NCBI GenBank assembly: GCA_011042755.1
Contig: DRBY01000074.1
Span: 1 to 7,321, forward strand
Direction: 5' to 3'
Length of the DNA stretch: 7,321 nt
Source: Thermoproteota archaeon
GTDB taxonomy: Archaea > Thermoproteota > Korarchaeia > Korarchaeales > Korarchaeaceae
Part shown: positions 1-6,814 of the stretch, one piece after another
Position numbering within the stretch: position 1 is the stretch's first letter
How the letters are laid out: the number at the start of each line of letters is the position of its first letter
Position numbers and translations under genes: made by a program
The notes under the pieces: generated by a model
The model's input: only the letters and a program-made list of their open reading frames with translations
What the model was told of the DNA's origin: nothing
The model's database searches: none

Positions 1-8
1 GCCTAGTC

Positions 9-638
9 ATGGAGGCGGCTAGGCAGGCTCTCCTGCTAGCCGCCTTATCTCTACCAAAGCAGAGGTCTATAGACCTCATAGGGGACAAGCTCGGTCTGAG
101 CAGGGCTGAGAGGGTAGCTGTTGAGAGGCTCGTTCGGTGGCCTGGGGAGGCCGTGGCATCGGCGGTCAAGAAGGTTCCGGCAGAGGCGGCCAGAGGGAGG
201 GACATCGGGGTTGACGGCCACAATGTCCTGATCACCGTGGAGGCTATGCTGATAGGCGAACCGGTCTTCCTGTGCTCGGATGGCTTCTTGAGGGATCTAA
301 GAGGGGTATTCTCGAGTTACAAACCATCTGAAGTGACTCCAGACGCCCTAAGGGAGATTGCAAGGGTTCTCAAGGAGATAGGGCCTCGCAGGGTCGTGAT
401 AGTCTTTGACGAACCCATGAGCCGCAGCGGAGAGCTGGCCGCCTTGACCAGGCAGGTCTTGTCTGAGTTCAAGCTTGCTGGCGACTCTCTGACCCACAAA
501 CATGTGGATACGTTCGTTGCTTCGCATGACGTGGCAGCTAGCTCGGATGTAGCGGTTATTGAGAAGGCCAAGTGCGTTTTAGATATCCCGGAACTCGTCG
601 CTAGGCGAAGGGGCCTTGAGCCTAAGGTTATCTGGTAG
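9..638 (+). CDS. DUF434/DUF5616 domain protein
   Basis: Conserved archaeal protein of unknown function, 209 residues. The N-terminal ~45 residues are helical and match the DUF434 pattern (an IGDKLGLSRAER-like stretch at 22-35). The rest matches the DUF5616 pattern, with four conserved blocks: DGHNVLITVE at 69-78, DGFLRD at 91-96, FDEPMSRSGELA at 133-144 and SSDVAVIE at 178-185. There is no signal peptide or membrane segment, so it should be cytoplasmic. The spacing of acidic residues (D-G-x-N, then hydrophobic strand-F-D, then S-D) resembles NYN/PIN-type nucleases; that is my inference, not an established function. The ATG at 9 fits the expected domain start, but the frame is open to the window edge, so an upstream start cannot be excluded. 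It precedes mtnA by 27 bp on the same strand and is probably co-transcribed with it; nothing seen ties it to methionine salvage. Confidence 0.85.
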   Translation: MEAARQALLLAALSLPKQRSIDLIGDKLGLSRAERVAVERLVRWPGEAVASAVKKVPAEAARGRDIGVDGHNVLITVEAMLIGEPVFLCSDGFLRDLRGVFSSYKPSEVTPDALREIARVLKEIGPRRVVIVFDEPMSRSGELAALTRQVLSEFKLAGDSLTHKHVDTFVASHDVAASSDVAVIEKAKCVLDIPELVARRRGLEPKVIW

Positions 639-665: not shown

Positions 666-1718
666 ATGCCACCAGCGCTTCCGTGGACTGTGAGACTGGA
701 AGAGGATAATGTAGTTCTGATAGATCAGACGGCTCTACCGACGGAGCTAAAGTTCGTGGAGTGTAGCGACGTTGAGTGCGTTGCTCGAGCGATTGAGACG
801 ATGGTGGTGAGGGGCGCGCCGGCAATTGGCGCCACGGCCGCCTTTGGCCTGGCTCTAGCGGCCATGCACTCTAAGGCCACCGATCCCAAGGCCTTGCTAG
901 AGGAACTCAAGGTGGCGGCCGAGAGGCTCAGGAAGACGCGGCCAACCGCAGTGAACCTCTTCTGGGCCATAGATCGAGTTATGTCCGCGGCCGTGAAGGC
1001 AGCCGACTCAGGCTCAGCAGATGCCATAAGGGAGAATGTGGTCAAGGAAGCCAAGGCCATAGCTCAAGAAGATGTGGATGCGAATATGGCCATAGGGAGG
1101 CATGGCGCGGAGCTAATAGACGATGGAATGACTATAATGACGATCTGCAACGCTGGAACGCTAGCTACGGTCTGGTATGGCACTGTCACGGCTCCAGTCT
1201 ATACGGCCTGGGATCAGGGAAAGAGGTTCTCCGTGATAGCTCTCGAGACCAGGCCCGTGCTCCAGGGAGCTAGGTTGACGGCGTATGAACTCCATGCGGC
1301 CGGCATACCGGTGACCCTGATCGTGGACGGCGCCGCCGCTCACACGATGAGGGAGAAGGGCGTAGACCTAATCTTCGTGGGAGCAGACAGAATACTGGCA
1401 GACGGTACCGTGTACAACAAGATAGGGACGTACAGCCTAGCCTTGGCGGCCAGAGCTCACGGAATTCCGTTCTTCTCAGTCGCTCCAACAAGCACATTCG
1501 ATTTGAAGTCGACCAGATCCGATGTCAGGATAGAGGAGAGGAGTCCCGACGAGGTCACACACGTTCGGGGAGTGAGGATAGCTCCAGAGGGCGTGAACGT
1601 ATTCAATCCGGCGTTCGACATGACTCCTCCAGAACTCCTCACTGGGATAATAACCGAGAAAGGAATCCTATATCAGCCCTTGAAGCTGTCTATAGCCAGA
1701 ACTCTCGGAACGCATTAA
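666..1718 (+). CDS. mtnA: S-methyl-5-thioribose-1-phosphate isomerase MtnA
   Basis: Cytoplasmic aldose-ketose isomerase converting 5-methylthioribose-1-phosphate to 5-methylthioribulose-1-phosphate in salvage of methylthioadenosine. The 350 residues are the normal family length. Seen: RGAPAIG at 49-55; CNAGTLAT at 161-168 carrying the catalytic cysteine, C161; ETRPVLQGARLTAYEL at 194-209; VGADRI at 238-243 carrying the catalytic aspartate, D241; NKIGTY at 251-256; and the C-terminal block EEVTH/RGVRIAPEGV-type at about 294-310 followed by NPAFDMTP at 314-321. The CNAG motif and the full C-terminal block separate it from ribose-1,5-bisphosphate isomerase and eIF2B-like relatives. A strong Shine-Dalgarno site supports the ATG. 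It follows the DUF434 gene by 27 bp and converges on the GIY-YIG-HAD gene with one base between the two stop codons. No other methionine-salvage gene is recognisable here, although the convergent HAD phosphatase could conceivably act in the pathway. Confidence 0.96.
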   Translation: MPPALPWTVRLEEDNVVLIDQTALPTELKFVECSDVECVARAIETMVVRGAPAIGATAAFGLALAAMHSKATDPKALLEELKVAAERLRKTRPTAVNLFWAIDRVMSAAVKAADSGSADAIRENVVKEAKAIAQEDVDANMAIGRHGAELIDDGMTIMTICNAGTLATVWYGTVTAPVYTAWDQGKRFSVIALETRPVLQGARLTAYELHAAGIPVTLIVDGAAAHTMREKGVDLIFVGADRILADGTVYNKIGTYSLALAARAHGIPFFSVAPTSTFDLKSTRSDVRIEERSPDEVTHVRGVRIAPEGVNVFNPAFDMTPPELLTGIITEKGILYQPLKLSIARTLGTH

Positions 1719-1719
1719 C

Positions 1720-2820
1720 CTACGCCTTCACGAGTACATCGTGAATCTGGGCAAGGCTCGTCAGGACCGGCGCGCCAACAGGCTCCTGTGGAGGATTCCG
1801 CCTAGCCAGGAGTATTCCCCTGATGCCGACGCTCTGAGGGGACAGCACATCCGATCTGAGAAGATCTCCCACGGTAACTGTGTCGTGTGGCTGGATCTCT
1901 AGGAGATCCAACGCTCTGACGTAGGCTTCTGGGTTAACCTTGTTGATCCCCAGATCCTCAGAAGTGATGATGGCGTCAAATGCTGAGCTGAGCCCTATCT
2001 TCTCGAGCTTCGCGCGCTGCCACCTCGAAAATCCGTCTGAGAGTAGGACGAGCTTGAAGCTCATCTTAGCTAAGTCTAGGATGGCGAAGGCATCTGGATA
2101 GGGCTCAGATAGATGAATAGATTCTTCCCAAAACTCTCTCTCAGCTTCTTCAGGCGGCGGTATCAGGGGGAACTTCTCCCTAAGCCTCTCGAAAACCCTC
2201 CTCTTGGAGTACTTCTCTGGCAACTCAGGCATCTCCGCATAGATGGACCGTCTGACATTCTCGTAGGACTCCACTAAGGCCTCTGGATCTATCCCCCACT
2301 TCTTAGCGAGATTCGTAACAGCCTGCAATCTCTTCAGGTCGTAGTCGCACAGAGTGCCATCTAGATCTACTATCACTACCTCGGCAGCTTCCCTGTATTT
2401 CGGCTTCATTCCGAGCTTGAGTATGGCAGATTCGGACGCCTTCCTCGCTATCGTGAGGTCGGTTCCAAGGTACTTGAGGTGTGAGCCAGTTCTAGCGTCG
2501 CTGCTACCGAACTTAGGGACCGGCTCTCCATCTAGCACCTCTGCGAGCTCATCTTCCATAGACGGATCTCGGGTCTCCCCGTAAATTGCGCAGAGGGGCT
2601 TTACCGCGGGGCTGGACGTGAGCCAGTCTATGTGCCAGCGCACCCTCTCTGGACGCCTCAGGTGTCTCTCGATCCTCTTCTGAAGTCTAGCCATCGCTCT
2701 GCCAACATACGCATAGTAGCCTTCCCTGAACTCTATGACGCCGAGAGAGCCAACCTTGAACTCACGGCTCTCTAGCACCTTAACGATGAGCAAGTAGACA
2801 CCGGAGTCCAAAGCCTGCAC
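1720..2820 (-). CDS. DUF123 GIY-YIG domain fused to HAD hydrolase
   Basis: A 366-residue two-domain protein. Residues 1-118 match DUF123, an archaeal-type GIY-YIG nuclease-like domain: GVY at 7-9, YVG at 38-40, R49 and H53 in RIERHLR, RWHIDWL at 61-67, E89/E91 and GSSD at 105-108. The usual Cys-x-Cys after GSSD is missing (A109, T111). After a linker, residues ~147-366 form a HAD phosphatase with all four motifs: DLDGT at 152-156 (nucleophile D152, acid/base D154), SDG at 261-263, K294, and GDLLRSD at 318-324 (D319, D324). The ~100-residue helical insert between motifs I and II is a C1 cap, as in phosphoglycolate phosphatases and nucleotidases; the substrate is not readable from sequence. The fusion is unusual to me. 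It is the last gene of the ogg-gyaR operon, 27 bp after gyaR. The start is uncertain: GTG at 2820 has no ribosome site, whereas TTG at 2811 has GGGTG six bases upstream. Domain calls are firm; function is open. Confidence 0.87.
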   Translation of the reverse strand: MQALDSGVYLLIVKVLESREFKVGSLGVIEFREGYYAYVGRAMARLQKRIERHLRRPERVRWHIDWLTSSPAVKPLCAIYGETRDPSMEDELAEVLDGEPVPKFGSSDARTGSHLKYLGTDLTIARKASESAILKLGMKPKYREAAEVVIVDLDGTLCDYDLKRLQAVTNLAKKWGIDPEALVESYENVRRSIYAEMPELPEKYSKRRVFERLREKFPLIPPPEEAEREFWEESIHLSEPYPDAFAILDLAKMSFKLVLLSDGFSRWQRAKLEKIGLSSAFDAIITSEDLGINKVNPEAYVRALDLLEIQPHDTVTVGDLLRSDVLSPQSVGIRGILLARRNPPQEPVGAPVLTSLAQIHDVLVKA

Positions 2821-2825
2821 CCGTG

Positions 2826-2859
2826 AAAAAGAGAGGAGAGAGGGGCTTCAGCTGAAGCC
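2826..2859 (-). terminator. Palindrome plus pyrimidine/T tract, possible attenuator
   Basis: A perfect 16-bp palindrome, GGCTTCAGCTGAAGCC, occupies 2844-2859 and contains the gyaR stop codon. As RNA it can form a 6-bp stem with an AGCU loop. Reading leftward on the minus strand, it is followed by an unbroken C/T tract ending in five T residues at 2826-2830, just before the GTG of the GIY-YIG-HAD gene. This resembles an intrinsic or pyrimidine-tract archaeal terminator and could cause partial termination inside the operon. A dyad operator is the alternative. Confidence 0.4.
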
Positions 2860-3846
2860 AGGAGGCCTCACGTTGACTACATCCTTGTTCACGAGCGTTG
2901 GCGGGATCTTCCCTTCCTTGAAGGCTATTAGGTTCTCTGCAACAATCTCCGCCATGCGCGACCGCGTCTCAATGCTCGCGCTTGCGGCGTGAGGCGCCAG
3001 AACCACGTTCTTGAGCTGGAGCAGCGGGTCGTCAGGCGGTATCGGCTCCTGCTCGAACACATCTAGGGCTGCGCCTGCTATCCAGCCCTCCTTCAGAGCT
3101 CTGTAGAGAGCCTTCTGATCCACGACCTTCCCTCTCGCCGTATTTATCAAGAAGGCCGTTGGCTTCATCATCTTCAGCTCCTTCTCGCCGATCATGTGGT
3201 AGGTCTCGGGTGTGAGGGGAGTGTGCAGGCTGACGAAGTCAGACTCCCTCAGCAGGGTCTCAAGGTCGACGAACTGAGCGCCAAGCTCCTTCTCAGCCTC
3301 TTCGTTCCTCACGATGTCGTAGTAGAGGATCCTCATGTTGAAGCCCTTTGCCCTCCTGGCCACGGCCCGACCTATTCTGCCCAGCCCCACGATGCCGAGA
3401 GTGGCTCCGTAGACATCCGTCCCGAGCATCATGAGCGGGTGCCAAGCCACCTCCCACTTCCCAGTCCTCACGTACTCATCCGCCTCGACTACCCTCCTGG
3501 CCACCGCGAGCATTAGAGCGAACGCGAAGTCTGCCACAGTCTCGGTGAGCACGCCAGGCGTGTTGGTAACGTAGATCCCTCTCTTTGTGGCCTCTGAGAC
3601 ATCTATGTTGTCGAACCCGACGGCGTACTGAGCGATTATTCTGAGCCGAGGCGCCGCATCCATAACCTCCGCATCTATGGGATCTGTCAGCAGGGAGACG
3701 AGCGCGTCCGCATCCTTAACCCTCTCTATGATGACCTCCTTGGGGGGCGGGGCCTCCTCAGGCCAGAGATCGACTTCAAAGTGCTCTTTGATCTTCGCTA
3801 GACCCCTCTCGGGGATCTCCCTAGTCATGAATAGCTTGGGCTTCAT
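2848..3846 (-). CDS. gyaR: Glyoxylate reductase / D-2-hydroxyacid dehydrogenase
   Basis: Cytoplasmic NAD(P)H-dependent D-2-hydroxyacid dehydrogenase, reducing glyoxylate to glycolate (or hydroxypyruvate to D-glycerate). At 332 residues it matches Thermococcus-type glyoxylate reductase along its whole length, from [12 protein letters not shown] at the N-terminus to IPPTLVN-DVV and a PGF tail. Seen: substrate-loop YAVGFDNID at 74-82; Rossmann motif GLGRIG at 154-159; and the catalytic set R238 (NTARGKVVD), E267 (FEQEP) and H286 (APHAASAS). The last motif reads PHAAS where PHIGS is usual. D177 at the end of the second Rossmann strand (YYD) suggests NADH rather than NADPH preference; this is inference. 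The ATG at 3846 has AGGTG at 3854-3858, seven bases upstream. It lies 46 bp after ogg and 27 bp before the GIY-YIG-HAD gene on the same strand. Phosphoglycerate dehydrogenase is a less likely alternative because there is no ACT/regulatory domain. Confidence 0.93.
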
Positions 3847-3879
3847 GGGGGAACACCTAGTCAGGGCGACTTAGACTTC

Positions 3880-3887
3880 CCTATAAG
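3880..3887 (-). promoter_or_regulatory. Possible internal TATA box for gyaR
   Basis: The 46-bp ogg-gyaR gap holds CTTATAGG (minus-strand reading), centred about 27 bases before position 3857. A start there would leave a leader of about 11 bases containing the end of the AGGTG ribosome site. It may let gyaR and the fusion gene be transcribed independently of ogg. The match is short and unsupported by data. Confidence 0.35.
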
Positions 3888-3892
3888 CAGCT

Positions 3893-4528
3893 TCACCTGA
3901 ACACAAAACCCGTCTTCATGCACCACATGTAGAGGTCAAGCTCGGCCAGAGTCAGGCCGATCTCGACCGCAACTCCTCTCAACACACCTTCCAATTCTAG
4001 GTACCTCTTCACAGTGAGGCTCTTGGGGAGATCGCTCACGAGAGCATAGTCACGCATTATCCTCAGGATGTGCCTGTCTATAATAGCCACATCCTTACGC
4101 CCAGTGTTCCTCAGGAAATGACTTGCCTCCTTCATCCCCAGTCCTGGAATTTCTCTTCTGAGCCAGTCTCTTGCTCTACGAGAGGTTAGGCTCGGGATTA
4201 CCCGCCTCACGTCTTTCACGAGTCTCATGGCTTGCACTATGAATCTAGCCCGGGTCTTGGGGAATCTGTGCCCCATCCTCCTCAACACATTCTCAATTTC
4301 TGGGGCCGAGCCCCCAAAGAGAAGGCCGGTACTCCAGAGGTGGGTTGCAATCTCGAAGGCTCTTACAGCCTTGAAGTTGGCCGCGAGTATGCAGAAAGCT
4401 AGTTCCCTAGCCCAAAGCCTCCAGTCTCCAGATCCTATCTCCTCGAACTCCTTTAGCCTCGCTTCCACGACTCTTGCGACCTCTGGATCGGTTCTCAGCC
4501 TCTGAATCTCTCTCACGAGCCTCTGCAT
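3893..4528 (-). CDS. ogg: Ogg2-type 8-oxoguanine DNA glycosylase/AP lyase
   Basis: Base-excision repair enzyme that removes 8-oxoguanine and nicks the resulting abasic site by beta-elimination. The 211 residues agree with the ~207 of archaeal Ogg2. Seen (numbering from this start): FCILAANF at 45-52; [13 protein letters not shown] at 86-98; helix-hairpin-helix [17 protein letters not shown] at 127-143 with catalytic lysine K133; and IIDRHIL at 149-155 with catalytic aspartate D151. Family Ogg2 proteins end in a lysine that helps recognise the oxidised base; this one ends FVFR, an arginine. The ATG at 4528 is preferred over ATG 4576 and TTG 4591: homology begins at this methionine, and the AT block at 4553-4561 is at TATA distance. 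The longer forms would run through the promoter, and the TTG form would overlap radA. It is the first gene of the operon with gyaR and the GIY-YIG-HAD gene. Confidence 0.92.
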
Positions 4529-4552
4529 TTGATCAAACTTTCGCACGCGCAC

Positions 4553-4561
4553 AATTATTAT
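4553..4561. promoter_or_regulatory. Shared divergent TATA element of ogg and radA
   Basis: AATTATTAT is an isolated nine-base A/T block in otherwise GC-rich DNA, inside the 56-bp gap between the two start codons. Its centre (4557) is 29 bases from the ogg ATG (4528, minus) and 28 from the radA ATG (4585, plus), so transcription would begin a few bases before each ATG. Neither gene has a GGAGG-type ribosome site, as expected for leaderless messages; ogg does have a partial TGATC match. The purine run GGGGA abuts the block in the ogg direction and could act as the BRE. The radA side is weaker. Confidence 0.6.
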
Positions 4562-4584
4562 CCCCACGCTGGACATCAGTTTTG

Positions 4585-5616
4585 ATGCCAAGAGGTAAGA
4601 GGAAGGTCGAGACCGAAGGGGGAACAGATGATGAGCTGAACGTCGACGAGGCGCAGGAGCTGGAAGTCGAGCCCTACGATGAGTTTGACCTGACGACTCT
4701 AGAGGGGGTCGGACCGACCATAGCCAAGAGGCTGAGTGAGGCAGGCTTCACCACGTTGGAGTCGATTGCTCTAACCTCTCCAGCCGAACTTTCGGCGGCC
4801 GCGGGGATACCCGCCTCCACAGCCGCAAAGATCATCGCGGCGGCTAGGAAGATTCTGAAAGTCGATGTCATGACGGCCTACGACTACTACCAGAGGAGGA
4901 AGACCGTCCAAAGGATCACGACGGGATCTAAGGCTCTCGACGAGCTGCTTGGCGGGGGAATCGAGACCCAGGCGATCACCGAGATATACGGACCATACGG
5001 GTCAGGGAAGACTCAGCTATGCCACCAACTCGCCGTGACGGTGCAGCTGCCTGTAGAGCGAGGAGGGCTCGGGAGAAGATGCCTGTACATCGACACGGAG
5101 GGAACCTTCAGGCCGGAGAGAATAGTCCAGATTGCAGAGAGATTTGAGCTCGATCCAGAAGAGATTCTAAAGAACATCCTTGTGGCTAGAGCATTCACCA
5201 GCGACCACCAGATGGTCGTTACCGAGAAAGCAGAACCCTACCTAAAGAAATACAACGTGGGTCTGATCATAGTGGATTCGCTGATAAGTCACTTTAGAGG
5301 GGAGTTCACTGGTAGGGAGAACCTTGCTGAGAGGCAGCAGAAGCTCAACAAGTATCTGCATCGCCTCCTCAGGTACGCGCTGGGCTACAACTTGGCGGTT
5401 CTCGTTACGAACCAGGTCATAGCAGATCCTTCTGCCTTCTTTGGGGATCCAAACAGGCCGGCTGGCGGACACGTGCTGGGGCACGGCGTGACTGCTAGGT
5501 TATACATCAAGAGGGGTAAGGGAAATCGGAGAATAGTGAAGTTGGTCAAGAGTCCCTATCTGCCTGAAGACGCTGTAGAGGTTGCCATAACCGGTGGCGG
5601 CATAGAAGACGTGTGA
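4585..5616 (+). CDS. radA: DNA repair and recombination protein RadA
   Basis: Archaeal RecA/Rad51-family recombinase that forms ATP-dependent filaments on single-stranded DNA and catalyses strand exchange. Length 343, normal for RadA. Residues 1-36 are charged and mostly acidic; 37-92 form the helix-hairpin-helix N-terminal domain ([12 protein letters not shown] at 39-50). The ATPase core has [20 protein letters not shown] at 110-129, Walker A GPYGSGKT at 136-143, [12 protein letters not shown] at 168-179, Walker B LIIVDS at 227-232, [13 protein letters not shown] at 244-256, TNQV at 275-278 and GGH at 294-296. Two departures stand out: the linker polymerisation motif FxxA reads VMTA at 95-98, and Walker A has PY where EF is usual. 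The frame is open upstream to an ATG at 4474, but that would overlap ogg; the ATG at 4585 gives the expected N-terminus and sits 28 bases from the shared TATA element. First gene of a plus-strand run, seven bases before the next start. Confidence 0.97.
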
Positions 5617-5623
5617 GGAAGCC

Positions 5624-5833
5624 ATGAACGCCATGATCCAAGTAGAGATAGAGGGGCAGGTATTAACGGTCAGCCGATTCACAAGAGTAGCAGATCTCCT
5701 CAGGGAGATGGGTCTCCACCCGGAGTCGACTCTAGTGCTCGTGAATGGCAGGCCGGCCCCAGAGAGAATGTACCTATCTCAGGGAGATCGCGTCAAGTTC
5801 GTGAAGGTGACTGTTCACTTCCAGGGTGTGTGA
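5624..5833 (+). CDS. ThiS/MoaD-like beta-grasp small protein
   Basis: A 69-residue ubiquitin-fold protein of the ThiS/MoaD type. The pattern is seen in the strand VEIEGQVLTV at 7-16, the helix RVADLLREMGL at 21-31, LVLVNGRPAP at 37-46 and LSQGDRVKFVKV at 51-62. Typical sulfur carriers end in Gly-Gly, the site of adenylation and thiocarboxylate formation; this one ends in HFQGV, with a single glycine followed by valine. No reading frame near the end supplies a GG tail. The gene starts seven bases after radA, with GAGG at 5615-5618 five bases upstream of the ATG, and ends three bases before the tRNA thiolase start. Tight spacing suggests translational coupling and a role with that enzyme, as sulfur donor or as a non-activated accessory subunit. 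ATG 5633 is a less likely alternative start. Confidence 0.82.
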   Translation: MNAMIQVEIEGQVLTVSRFTRVADLLREMGLHPESTLVLVNGRPAPERMYLSQGDRVKFVKVTVHFQGV

Positions 5834-5836
5834 CCA

Positions 5837-6814
5837 GTGAGACCTCTGTGTGATCGCTGCGGCCGGAGAGAAGCCATCCATACGCTCAGGGCTTCCGGAG
5901 AGAATCTCTGCGGGAACTGTCTTCTCCAGGAGATTAGACTGAAGGTCTACTCAGTACTCGACAGGGTTCTAGAAGAGGGGGATAGGGTTGCTGTGGCGCT
6001 CTCCGGCGGGAAAGATAGCTCACTGACTCTTTACATGCTGAAGGAGTACGGAGAGCACGCAAGACTGAACTTCGAACTGGCTGCAATAACGGTGGATGAG
6101 GGAACCCCCTATCGAAGGACTGCGATAGAGAAAGCGTCAGAACTCACGAAGTTGCTTGGAGTGAATCACAGAATAGTGGCTATGCGGGACTATCACGGCA
6201 TTAGCGTCTCTGAGATCAGATCTAAGCTCCCTGCTCGCTGGAGGAGGTCTGCTTGTACCTACTGCGGGGTGCTTCGCAGGTGGATAATCAACTCCGTGGC
6301 TAGAGAGATGGGAGCTACCAAGGTGGCGACAGGCCACAATCTGGACGATGTCCTCCAGACTCACATAATGAACCTCGCCAGGGGCGACGTCCCGGCCATG
6401 GCTAGGTCTGGCCAGGGGGTTAGGTCCCCCTCTCCAAAGATGGTGCCGAGGATCAAGCCGCTGGCCCTGATCAGGGAGCGCGACGCGGCGGCGCTAACCC
6501 TCTACTTGGGTATTCCTGCTCACTTTGGAAAGTGTCCCCTCACTACAGGGATGAGGGTTGGGGTTAGGAGGGCTCTAGACGAGCTGGAATTGGCGCTGCC
6601 CGGCATCAAGGAAGACTTGGCTAACGGTATCGAGTCTGTAATATCGAGGGTTAGGTCCTCTGGGGGCGTGAGTGTAGAGCTGAGAGAGTGTAAGCTCTGT
6701 GGGGAGCCCACAACTGGAGAGATTTGTAAGGCGTGCCAGATGAAGCTAGAGCTAGAGCCAATCGTTCAGCGAACTCTTCTCTTCGGCTCCACGTCAAGTG
6801 AGGGCTCAAGTTAA
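5837..6814 (+). CDS. NcsA/TtuA-family tRNA 2-thiolation enzyme
   Basis: PP-loop ATPase that adenylates a tRNA uridine and replaces its 2-oxygen with sulfur, at position 34 (NcsA/Ncs6) or 54 (TtuA). All family elements are present in 325 residues: zinc pair 1 (C5, C8, C25, C28); PP-loop SGGKDS at 56-61; the three [4Fe-4S] ligands C140, C143 (SACTYCGVLRR) and C233 (GKCPL); TGHNLDD at 165-171; and zinc pair 2 (C285, C288, C297, C300). CTYCGVLRR is closer to NcsA/Ncs6, while CKLCGEPTTGEICKAC also fits archaeal TtuA, so the target position is left open and no symbol is given. The final ~15 residues are Ser/Gly-rich. The start is GTG, with GGGTG at 5824-5828 eight bases upstream. It is three bases after the ThiS/MoaD-like gene, its likely partner. 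Confidence 0.93.
   Translation: MRPLCDRCGRREAIHTLRASGENLCGNCLLQEIRLKVYSVLDRVLEEGDRVAVALSGGKDSSLTLYMLKEYGEHARLNFELAAITVDEGTPYRRTAIEKASELTKLLGVNHRIVAMRDYHGISVSEIRSKLPARWRRSACTYCGVLRRWIINSVAREMGATKVATGHNLDDVLQTHIMNLARGDVPAMARSGQGVRSPSPKMVPRIKPLALIRERDAAALTLYLGIPAHFGKCPLTTGMRVGVRRALDELELALPGIKEDLANGIESVISRVRSSGGVSVELRECKLCGEPTTGEICKACQMKLELEPIVQRTLLFGSTSSEGSS

What the first reader, a model, noticed from the sequence alone, without database searches (positions are those of the whole stretch)
1720..4528. Candidate oxidative DNA repair and phosphoglycolate-disposal operon: ogg - gyaR - GIY-YIG/HAD
Three same-strand genes with 46- and 27-bp gaps encode an 8-oxoguanine glycosylase/AP lyase, a glyoxylate reductase, and a nuclease-like domain fused to a C1-cap HAD phosphatase of the phosphoglycolate-phosphatase type. 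Established: oxidative attack on DNA sugars leaves 3'-phosphoglycolate ends whose repair releases 2-phosphoglycolate; E. coli Gph (a HAD enzyme) removes it; glyoxylate reductase interconverts glyoxylate and glycolate. Inference: the operon would excise the damaged base, process the end, dephosphorylate the product (or the DNA end itself) and handle the two-carbon acid. Divergence from radA strengthens the repair theme.
Basis: partly seen in the sequence, partly recalled or inferred. Interest (0 to 1): 0.78.

Follow-up and report, generated by a model that had tools for sequence, protein, structure and literature searches.

The report
Rare archaeal nuclease–phosphatase fusion beside ogg
A little-known archaeon carries a DNA-damage glycosylase gene next to a metabolic reductase gene and a rare fused nuclease–phosphatase gene; the genes are real and the fusion is worth testing, but the proposed phosphoglycolate-disposal pathway is not supported.

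Summary
The three genes and the 46- and 27-bp gaps are confirmed: an Ogg2-type 8-oxoguanine glycosylase, an archaeal glyoxylate/hydroxypyruvate reductase (GyaR), and a COG1833/DUF123 GIY-YIG nuclease domain fused to a C1-capped HAD phosphatase, in a korarchaeote-like host. The phosphoglycolate story fails on three points. The HAD domain scores far below every phosphoglycolate-phosphatase cut-off shown, and nearer to TIGR02253 and YjjG-type nucleotidases. Glycosylase/lyases leave a 3'-unsaturated aldehyde or 3'-phosphate, not phosphoglycolate. Characterised Pyrococcus GyaR enzymes are mainly hydroxypyruvate reductases. Linkage evidence is indirect and uneven: ogg and gyaR share six contig lengths among korarchaeal relatives, the fusion only one of these. 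The fusion, found in four protein clusters (one the window's own), is the new item. It keeps the GIY-YIG and HAD catalytic residues but lacks three cysteines present in 40–41 of 41 other DUF123 proteins sampled. The favoured role is a nuclease that trims damaged DNA, tethered to a phosphatase acting on the released product. This is inferred from domain content, the known EndoIII–COG1833 fusion and the ogg neighbour; no activity has been shown.

The parts
3893..4528 (-). ogg: Ogg2-type 8-oxoguanine glycosylase/AP lyase (211 aa from ATG 4528)
   Evidence: Ogg-HhH 175 bits, PRK01229 212 bits over cut-off 183 (longer frame 3893-4591 scanned); 162.6 bits to MjaOgg2 3FHF; keeps the Lys that is Gln in the 3KNT chain, and the IIDRH Asp
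2848..3846 (-). gyaR: archaeal glyoxylate/hydroxypyruvate reductase (332 aa)
   Evidence: NF009714 589 bits over cut-off 455; best solved relatives 6bii, 5aov, 2dbq at 461-466 bits
1720..2820 (-). DUF123 (COG1833, GIY-YIG) - HAD fusion, 366 aa from GTG 2820; probable real start TTG 2811
   Evidence: AlphaFold2 model of the full length, mean pLDDT 85, pTM 0.83, from 5 sequences
2461..2820 (-). DUF123 / GIY-YIG nuclease domain (about residues 1-120); Y9, Y38, R49, H53, E89 kept, family cysteines at 90, 109, 111 replaced by D, A, T
   Evidence: Pfam PF01986 72 bits; column counts in 41 family members and 4 fusions
1786..2388 (-). HAD-IA domain with C1 cap (about residues 145-345); D152, D154, S261, K294, D319, D324
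   Evidence: Pfam PF00702/PF13419; motif columns conserved in relatives (S261 is T in P0003), motif IV missing only in truncated P0004; fold matches
4529..4584 (.). 56-bp intergenic region between ogg and radA; AATTATTAT at 4553-4561 lies 24-25 bp from both start codons (possible shared TATA region; inference)
   Evidence: sequence
2844..2859 (.). 16-bp palindrome GGCTTCAGCTGAAGCC over the gyaR stop, followed on the - strand by a pyrimidine/T5 tract: possible partial terminator
   Evidence: the terminator scan did not flag it and the fold z-score is 0.40, no stronger than shuffles

Best explanation
In a korarchaeote-like archaeon, an ogg-gyaR gene pair (divergent from radA), which seems the wider linkage, has a third gene that seems lineage-restricted: a COG1833 GIY-YIG nuclease fused to a HAD-IA phosphatase. 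The fusion most likely works in damaged-DNA (base excision) repair: the GIY-YIG domain cuts the strand next to the lesion or to the blocked 3' end left by a glycosylase/lyase such as Ogg, and the HAD domain hydrolyses the small phosphorylated product released (a 5'-nucleotide or sugar-phosphate fragment). gyaR is probably a metabolic neighbour (hydroxypyruvate/glyoxylate reduction), not a step of the repair pathway. Shown: gene order in the window, domains, intact catalytic residues in both domains, lack of the family's three cysteines, rarity of the fusion in one search. Inferred: nuclease activity, repair role, HAD substrate, co-expression, gene order in relatives.
For: Catalytic residues of both domains conserved in the fusions. 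COG1833 is a GIY-YIG family with an EndoIII fusion in two methanococci, proposed in 2006 to act in base excision repair (PMC1564403). Fusion and ogg share contig lengths in two relatives besides the window (6221, 4098). TIGR02253 and YjjG nucleotidase are among the three leading HAD models in the window protein and in P0002-P0004; fold matches include NANP, PH0459 and YfnB. ogg and gyaR share 6 contig lengths among 21 x 69 top rows and none among the 12,951 other row pairs.
Against: No activity of any COG1833 protein was seen in print in the listings and passages looked at. In 25 genomes of another archaeal phylum having both a strong Ogg match and DUF123, the two lie at least 84 kb apart (8 genomes) or on different contigs (17), so Ogg-DUF123 linkage is not general. 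The fusion is not listed for 5 of 6 contig lengths shared by ogg and gyaR, though only each cluster's longest contig is printed. RuBP 5-phosphatase, a metabolic enzyme, scores second in P0002 (82 bits against cut-off 330). Possible separate promoter and terminator signals weaken co-transcription. Loss of the cysteines could mean the nuclease domain is degenerate, although its catalytic residues are kept.
Confidence: 0.35

Rival explanations
1. Neighbourhood without shared pathway: ogg, gyaR and the fusion are adjacent housekeeping genes in a compact archaeal genome, and the fusion's HAD domain is a general house-cleaning phosphatase (nucleotide or sugar phosphate) whose nuclease partner acts elsewhere, for example on RNA or in nucleotide turnover.
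For: gyaR is a metabolic enzyme with no evident chemical step after Ogg; the fusion is listed for only one of six contig lengths shared by ogg and gyaR; a TATA-like box before gyaR and a palindrome/T-tract after it; Ogg and DUF123 unlinked in another phylum.
Against: Same strand and short gaps; fusion and ogg share contig lengths in two relatives; COG1833 is fused to EndoIII in two methanococci.
Confidence: 0.4
2. One reading: the HAD domain removes phosphate from 2-phosphoglycolate (or from 3'-phosphoglycolate DNA ends) and GyaR handles the resulting two-carbon acid.
Against: PGP models at 23-40 bits against cut-offs of 180-466; 32-56 bits in P0002 and P0003, and no PGP model within E 1e-6 for the truncated P0004; Ogg chemistry would not make phosphoglycolate (inference); Pyrococcus GyaR prefers hydroxypyruvate; C1 caps favour small molecules, not DNA ends (recalled).
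Confidence: 0.06
3. The HAD domain serves methionine salvage or pentose-phosphate metabolism with the convergent mtnA gene.
Against: mtnA is on the opposite strand, convergent; RuBP phosphatase cut-off is 330 bits; no role for a nuclease domain.
Confidence: 0.05
4. The DUF123 part is a degenerate, non-catalytic DNA- or RNA-binding tether that merely places the phosphatase on nucleic acid.
For: Absence of three otherwise near-invariant cysteines in 4 of 4 fusions.
Against: The GIY-YIG positions Y9, Y38, R49, H53 and E89 are kept in 4 of 4; the 2006 study suggested that the Cys/His ligands stabilise the extension rather than catalyse.
Confidence: 0.14

Closest known systems
COG1833/DUF123 GIY-YIG proteins, including MJ0613 and MMP0538 (endonuclease III-COG1833 fusions)
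   Same: GIY-YIG core motifs and C-terminal FG-SD-SHL extension; association with a base-excision glycosylase, by fusion in MJ0613 and by neighbouring gene here
   Different: C-terminal HAD phosphatase instead of N-terminal EndoIII; family cysteines at columns 90/109/111 missing in 4 of 4 fusions; ogg is a separate gene
TIGR02253 / PH0459 / Thermococcus onnurineus HAD (4ygq) / NANP-type HAD-IA phosphatases and YjjG/YfnB nucleotidases
   Same: C1-capped HAD-IA fold with DxD, S/T, K and GDxxxxD motifs; among the best family and structure matches
   Different: Below their curated cut-offs; fused to a nuclease domain; substrate unknown
MjaOgg2 (PDB 3FHF/3KNT) 8-oxoguanine glycosylase/AP lyase
   Same: Full-length homology, Lys and Asp of the active site kept, 162.6 bits
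   Different: C-terminal residue Arg instead of Lys in the window and in the nine relatives fetched
Pyrococcus-type glyoxylate/hydroxypyruvate reductases (PDB 6bii, 5aov, 2dbq)
   Same: Full-length homology at 461-466 bits, over the NF009714 cut-off
   Different: No difference looked for beyond the scores; its placement next to ogg is the only unusual point

Membership tests
Ogg2-type 8-oxoguanine glycosylase | PRK01229 equivalog score over cut-off | tested here: met
   212 bits against 183
Ogg2-type 8-oxoguanine glycosylase | catalytic Lys and Asp of the HhH-GPD site | tested here: met
   alignment to 3FHF and 3KNT; roles recalled
Ogg2-type 8-oxoguanine glycosylase | C-terminal lysine, called strictly conserved in OGG2 (PMC3397491 passages) | tested here: not met
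   Arg in the window and in nine relatives; the role described is that of the terminal carboxyl group, which an Arg also offers
Ogg2-type 8-oxoguanine glycosylase | 8-oxoguanine excision and AP lyase activity | not testable with these tools
   needs enzyme assay
Archaeal glyoxylate reductase (GyaR/GRHPR) | NF009714 equivalog score over cut-off | tested here: met
   589 bits against 455
Archaeal glyoxylate reductase (GyaR/GRHPR) | preference for glyoxylate over hydroxypyruvate | not testable with these tools
   Pyrococcus enzymes prefer hydroxypyruvate; T. litoralis enzyme cited as preferring glyoxylate (PMC4749974 passages)
COG1833/DUF123 GIY-YIG nuclease | PF01986 score over cut-off | tested here: met
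   72 bits against 25
COG1833/DUF123 GIY-YIG nuclease | GIY-YIG catalytic Tyr, Tyr, Arg, His, Glu | tested here: met
   4 of 4 fusions; roles of the residues recalled
COG1833/DUF123 GIY-YIG nuclease | His/Cys-rich C-terminal cluster (described as semi-conserved, so not strictly defining) | tested here: not met
   Cys at columns 90/109/111 in 40, 41 and 41 of 41 family members and 0 of 4 fusions; His114 kept
COG1833/DUF123 GIY-YIG nuclease | GIY-YIG fold by structure comparison | tested here: inconclusive
   fold matches of the full-length model are almost all to the HAD part; the model of the domain alone was poor, pLDDT 46.9
Phosphoglycolate phosphatase (Gph/PGP) | PGP equivalog cut-off (TIGR01449, PRK13222.1-2, PRK13222.1-4, PRK13223) | tested here: not met
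   34, 40, 23 and 29 bits against 180, 225, 327 and 466
YjjG noncanonical pyrimidine nucleotidase | TIGR02254 equivalog cut-off | tested here: not met
   77.9 bits against 159.9
TIGR02253 HAD-type hydrolase | subfamily cut-off | tested here: not met
   89.2 bits against 169.75
HAD-IA phosphatase superfamily with C1 cap | four HAD motifs and helical cap between motifs I and II | tested here: met
   motif columns, helices 160-237 between motifs I and II in the model, HAD-IA-v1 36.6 bits over cut-off 23.3

The most novel reading that the evidence does not exclude
The DUF123-HAD fusion is a previously undescribed single-polypeptide repair enzyme of korarchaeotes: a GIY-YIG nuclease that no longer has the family's cysteine cluster removes the blocked 3' end or damaged nucleotide created by Ogg, and the attached phosphatase immediately destroys the released damaged nucleotide or reactive sugar phosphate so that it cannot be reused.
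Probability: 0.2. Interest if true: 0.7.

Novelty: new variant of a known kind. Interest (0 to 1): 0.38.

Why it matters
COG1833 was described in 2006 as a predicted archaeal nuclease of unproven repair role (PMC1564403), and no later functional study turned up in the searches made. A natural fusion to a phosphatase, beside an 8-oxoguanine glycosylase, offers a concrete and testable substrate class (DNA ends after glycosylase/lyase action, then the released phosphorylated product). The variant without the cysteine triad also tests whether the putative metal cluster of COG1833 is only structural.
Full report
WHAT IS THERE. The window is a 7.3-kb archaeal fragment. Its best Ogg and GyaR relatives include korarchaeal records (named rows: Candidatus Korarchaeota archaeon, Methanodesulfokora, 'Thermoproteota archaeon'), so the host is korarchaeote-like; it was not identified further. 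Gene order: DUF5616 protein (3-638 +), mtnA (666-1718 +), DUF123-HAD fusion (1720-2820 -), gyaR (2848-3846 -), ogg (3893-4528 -), radA (4585-5616 +), a ThiS/SAMP2-like ubiquitin-fold protein (5624-5833 +), a TtuA/NcsA-like PP-loop protein (5837-6814 +), and a PAC2-family protein running off the end (6852- +). Start codons, stops and gaps of 46, 27, 1 and 56 bp were checked directly. No tRNA was found.

IS THE HAD A PHOSPHOGLYCOLATE PHOSPHATASE? By family models, no. In the window protein TIGR02253 scores 89, YjjG/YfnB nucleotidase 78, RuBP 5-phosphatase 61, and the four PGP models shown 23-40 bits, each below its own cut-off (PGP cut-offs 180-466, best 25 of 32 families shown). In P0002 and P0003 the same three models lead (TIGR02253 first in both; RuBP phosphatase second in P0002, YjjG second in P0003), with PGP models at 32-56 bits; the truncated P0004 matches only YjjG, TIGR02253 and RuBP phosphatase models at E 1e-6. 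The domain has a complete phosphatase motif set (D152, D154, S261, K294, D319, D324; motif roles recalled), so it is a likely phosphatase of unknown substrate, nearest to nucleotidase/NANP-type families.

IS THE PATHWAY CHEMICALLY COHERENT? [quoted passage not shown] Phosphoglycolate ends come from sugar oxidation, a different lesion (recalled). Pyrococcus GyaR enzymes were reported to be NADH-dependent hydroxypyruvate reductases with residual glyoxylate activity; the same paper cites earlier work in which the T. litoralis enzyme preferred glyoxylate (PMC4749974, passages read). Either way the enzyme reduces glyoxylate to glycolate, so it would make glycolate rather than dispose of it (direction recalled). 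The three genes therefore do not form the proposed sequence of reactions.

CONSERVATION. No korarchaeal genome could be fetched. As a substitute I compared the 'longest contig' lengths printed for protein clusters (typed). Among the 21 best Ogg rows and 69 best GyaR rows, 6 lengths coincide (4098, 13540, 50553, 99289, 170449 and 1676138); among the remaining 12,951 row pairs of the two 120-row lists, none does. The fusion shares a length with ogg twice (6221 and 4098) and with gyaR once (4098) (for the fusion, 4 clusters against those 21 and 69 rows). So ogg and gyaR probably share contigs in several korarchaeotes, all three genes are probably on one 4,098-base contig (P0004, named 'Thermoproteota archaeon' DRO06; the three clusters carry partly different source labels), and the fusion was not listed for the other five ogg+gyaR lengths. 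The method shows a probable shared contig, not adjacency; only the longest contig of each cluster is printed, so a missing match is weak; the 1.68-Mb contig carries no information on proximity; and the remaining row pairs are only a rough control, being largely from other organisms. In 100 genomes of another archaeal phylum (that of L001), DUF123 was found in 86, Ogg over its cut-off in 30 and GyaR over its cut-off in none. Of 26 genomes with a strong Ogg match (133 bits or more), 25 had DUF123, 8 on the same contig, the closest 84.7 kb apart. Ogg-DUF123 linkage is thus not general in archaea.

THE NEW ITEM: A DUF123 WITHOUT ITS CYSTEINE TRIAD, FUSED TO A PHOSPHATASE. A search of about 5.8 billion proteins (length-limited and dependent on shared words) found four clusters with DUF123 plus HAD, one of them the window's own, and one SfsA-DUF123 protein. 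In an alignment with 41 other DUF123 sequences (40 from genome loci of one phylum after dropping two duplicates, plus P0005), Y9, Y38, R49, H53 and E89 are kept by 40 or 41 of 41, and cysteines stand at columns 90, 109 and 111 in 40, 41 and 41 of 41. The four fusions (window, P0002, P0003, P0004) keep Y9, Y38, R49, H53, E89, D108 and H114 but have no cysteine at any of the three columns; they do have cysteines elsewhere (column 106 in P0003 and P0004, as in 22 of the 41). [quoted passage not shown] I found no later functional study of the family in the held library (judged from listings); most subscription papers are not held.

HOW IT MOST LIKELY WORKS. I favour a repair enzyme in which the GIY-YIG domain cuts next to the damaged or blocked site and the HAD domain dephosphorylates the released product (0.35). 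The strongest rival is a neighbourhood without a shared pathway (0.4 as a statement about the three genes; it partly overlaps with the favoured view, since gyaR is treated as a bystander in both). Transcription as one unit is unproven: gyaR has a TATA-like sequence in the 46-bp gap (3880-3887), a 16-bp palindrome followed by a pyrimidine/T5 tract separates gyaR from the fusion, although the terminator scan does not flag it and the fold of that region is not stronger than its shuffles (z 0.40). The AT-rich box at 4553-4561 lies 24-25 bp from both the ogg and radA start codons, which would suit divergent, leaderless archaeal transcripts (inference).

VERDICT. Observation partly confirmed; interpretation partly supported; the pathway headline is not supported. 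The fusion is a new variant of a known kind and the reason the locus deserves any interest (0.38).

Noticed in passing
window 4585-6814 (+): radA is followed at 7- and 3-bp gaps by a ThiS/SAMP2-like sulfur-carrier protein and a TtuA/NcsA-like PP-loop tRNA thiolase homologue, a ubiquitin-fold/thiolation pair next to a recombinase.
   Followed up: no
window 666-1720: mtnA (TIGR00512 397 bits over cut-off 279) is convergent with the fusion, with one base between the two stop codons.
   Followed up: partly
window 3893-3898 (-): The Ogg C-terminus is Arg (FVFR) in the window and in all nine relatives fetched, where a review calls a C-terminal Lys strictly conserved in OGG2 (PMC3397491 passages).
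   Followed up: partly
protein P0005 (385 aa): A natural SfsA-DUF123 fusion (PF03749/PF17746 plus PF01986, 109 member sequences), another architecture for COG1833; it keeps the cysteine triad.
   Followed up: partly
window 2844-2859: A 16-bp palindrome over the gyaR stop codon, followed on the - strand by a pyrimidine/T5 tract; seen before it was searched for, so no chance figure applies.
   Followed up: partly
window 3-638 (+): DUF5616-family protein with a weak DUF434 match (below its cut-off), running off the window start; function unknown.
   Followed up: no
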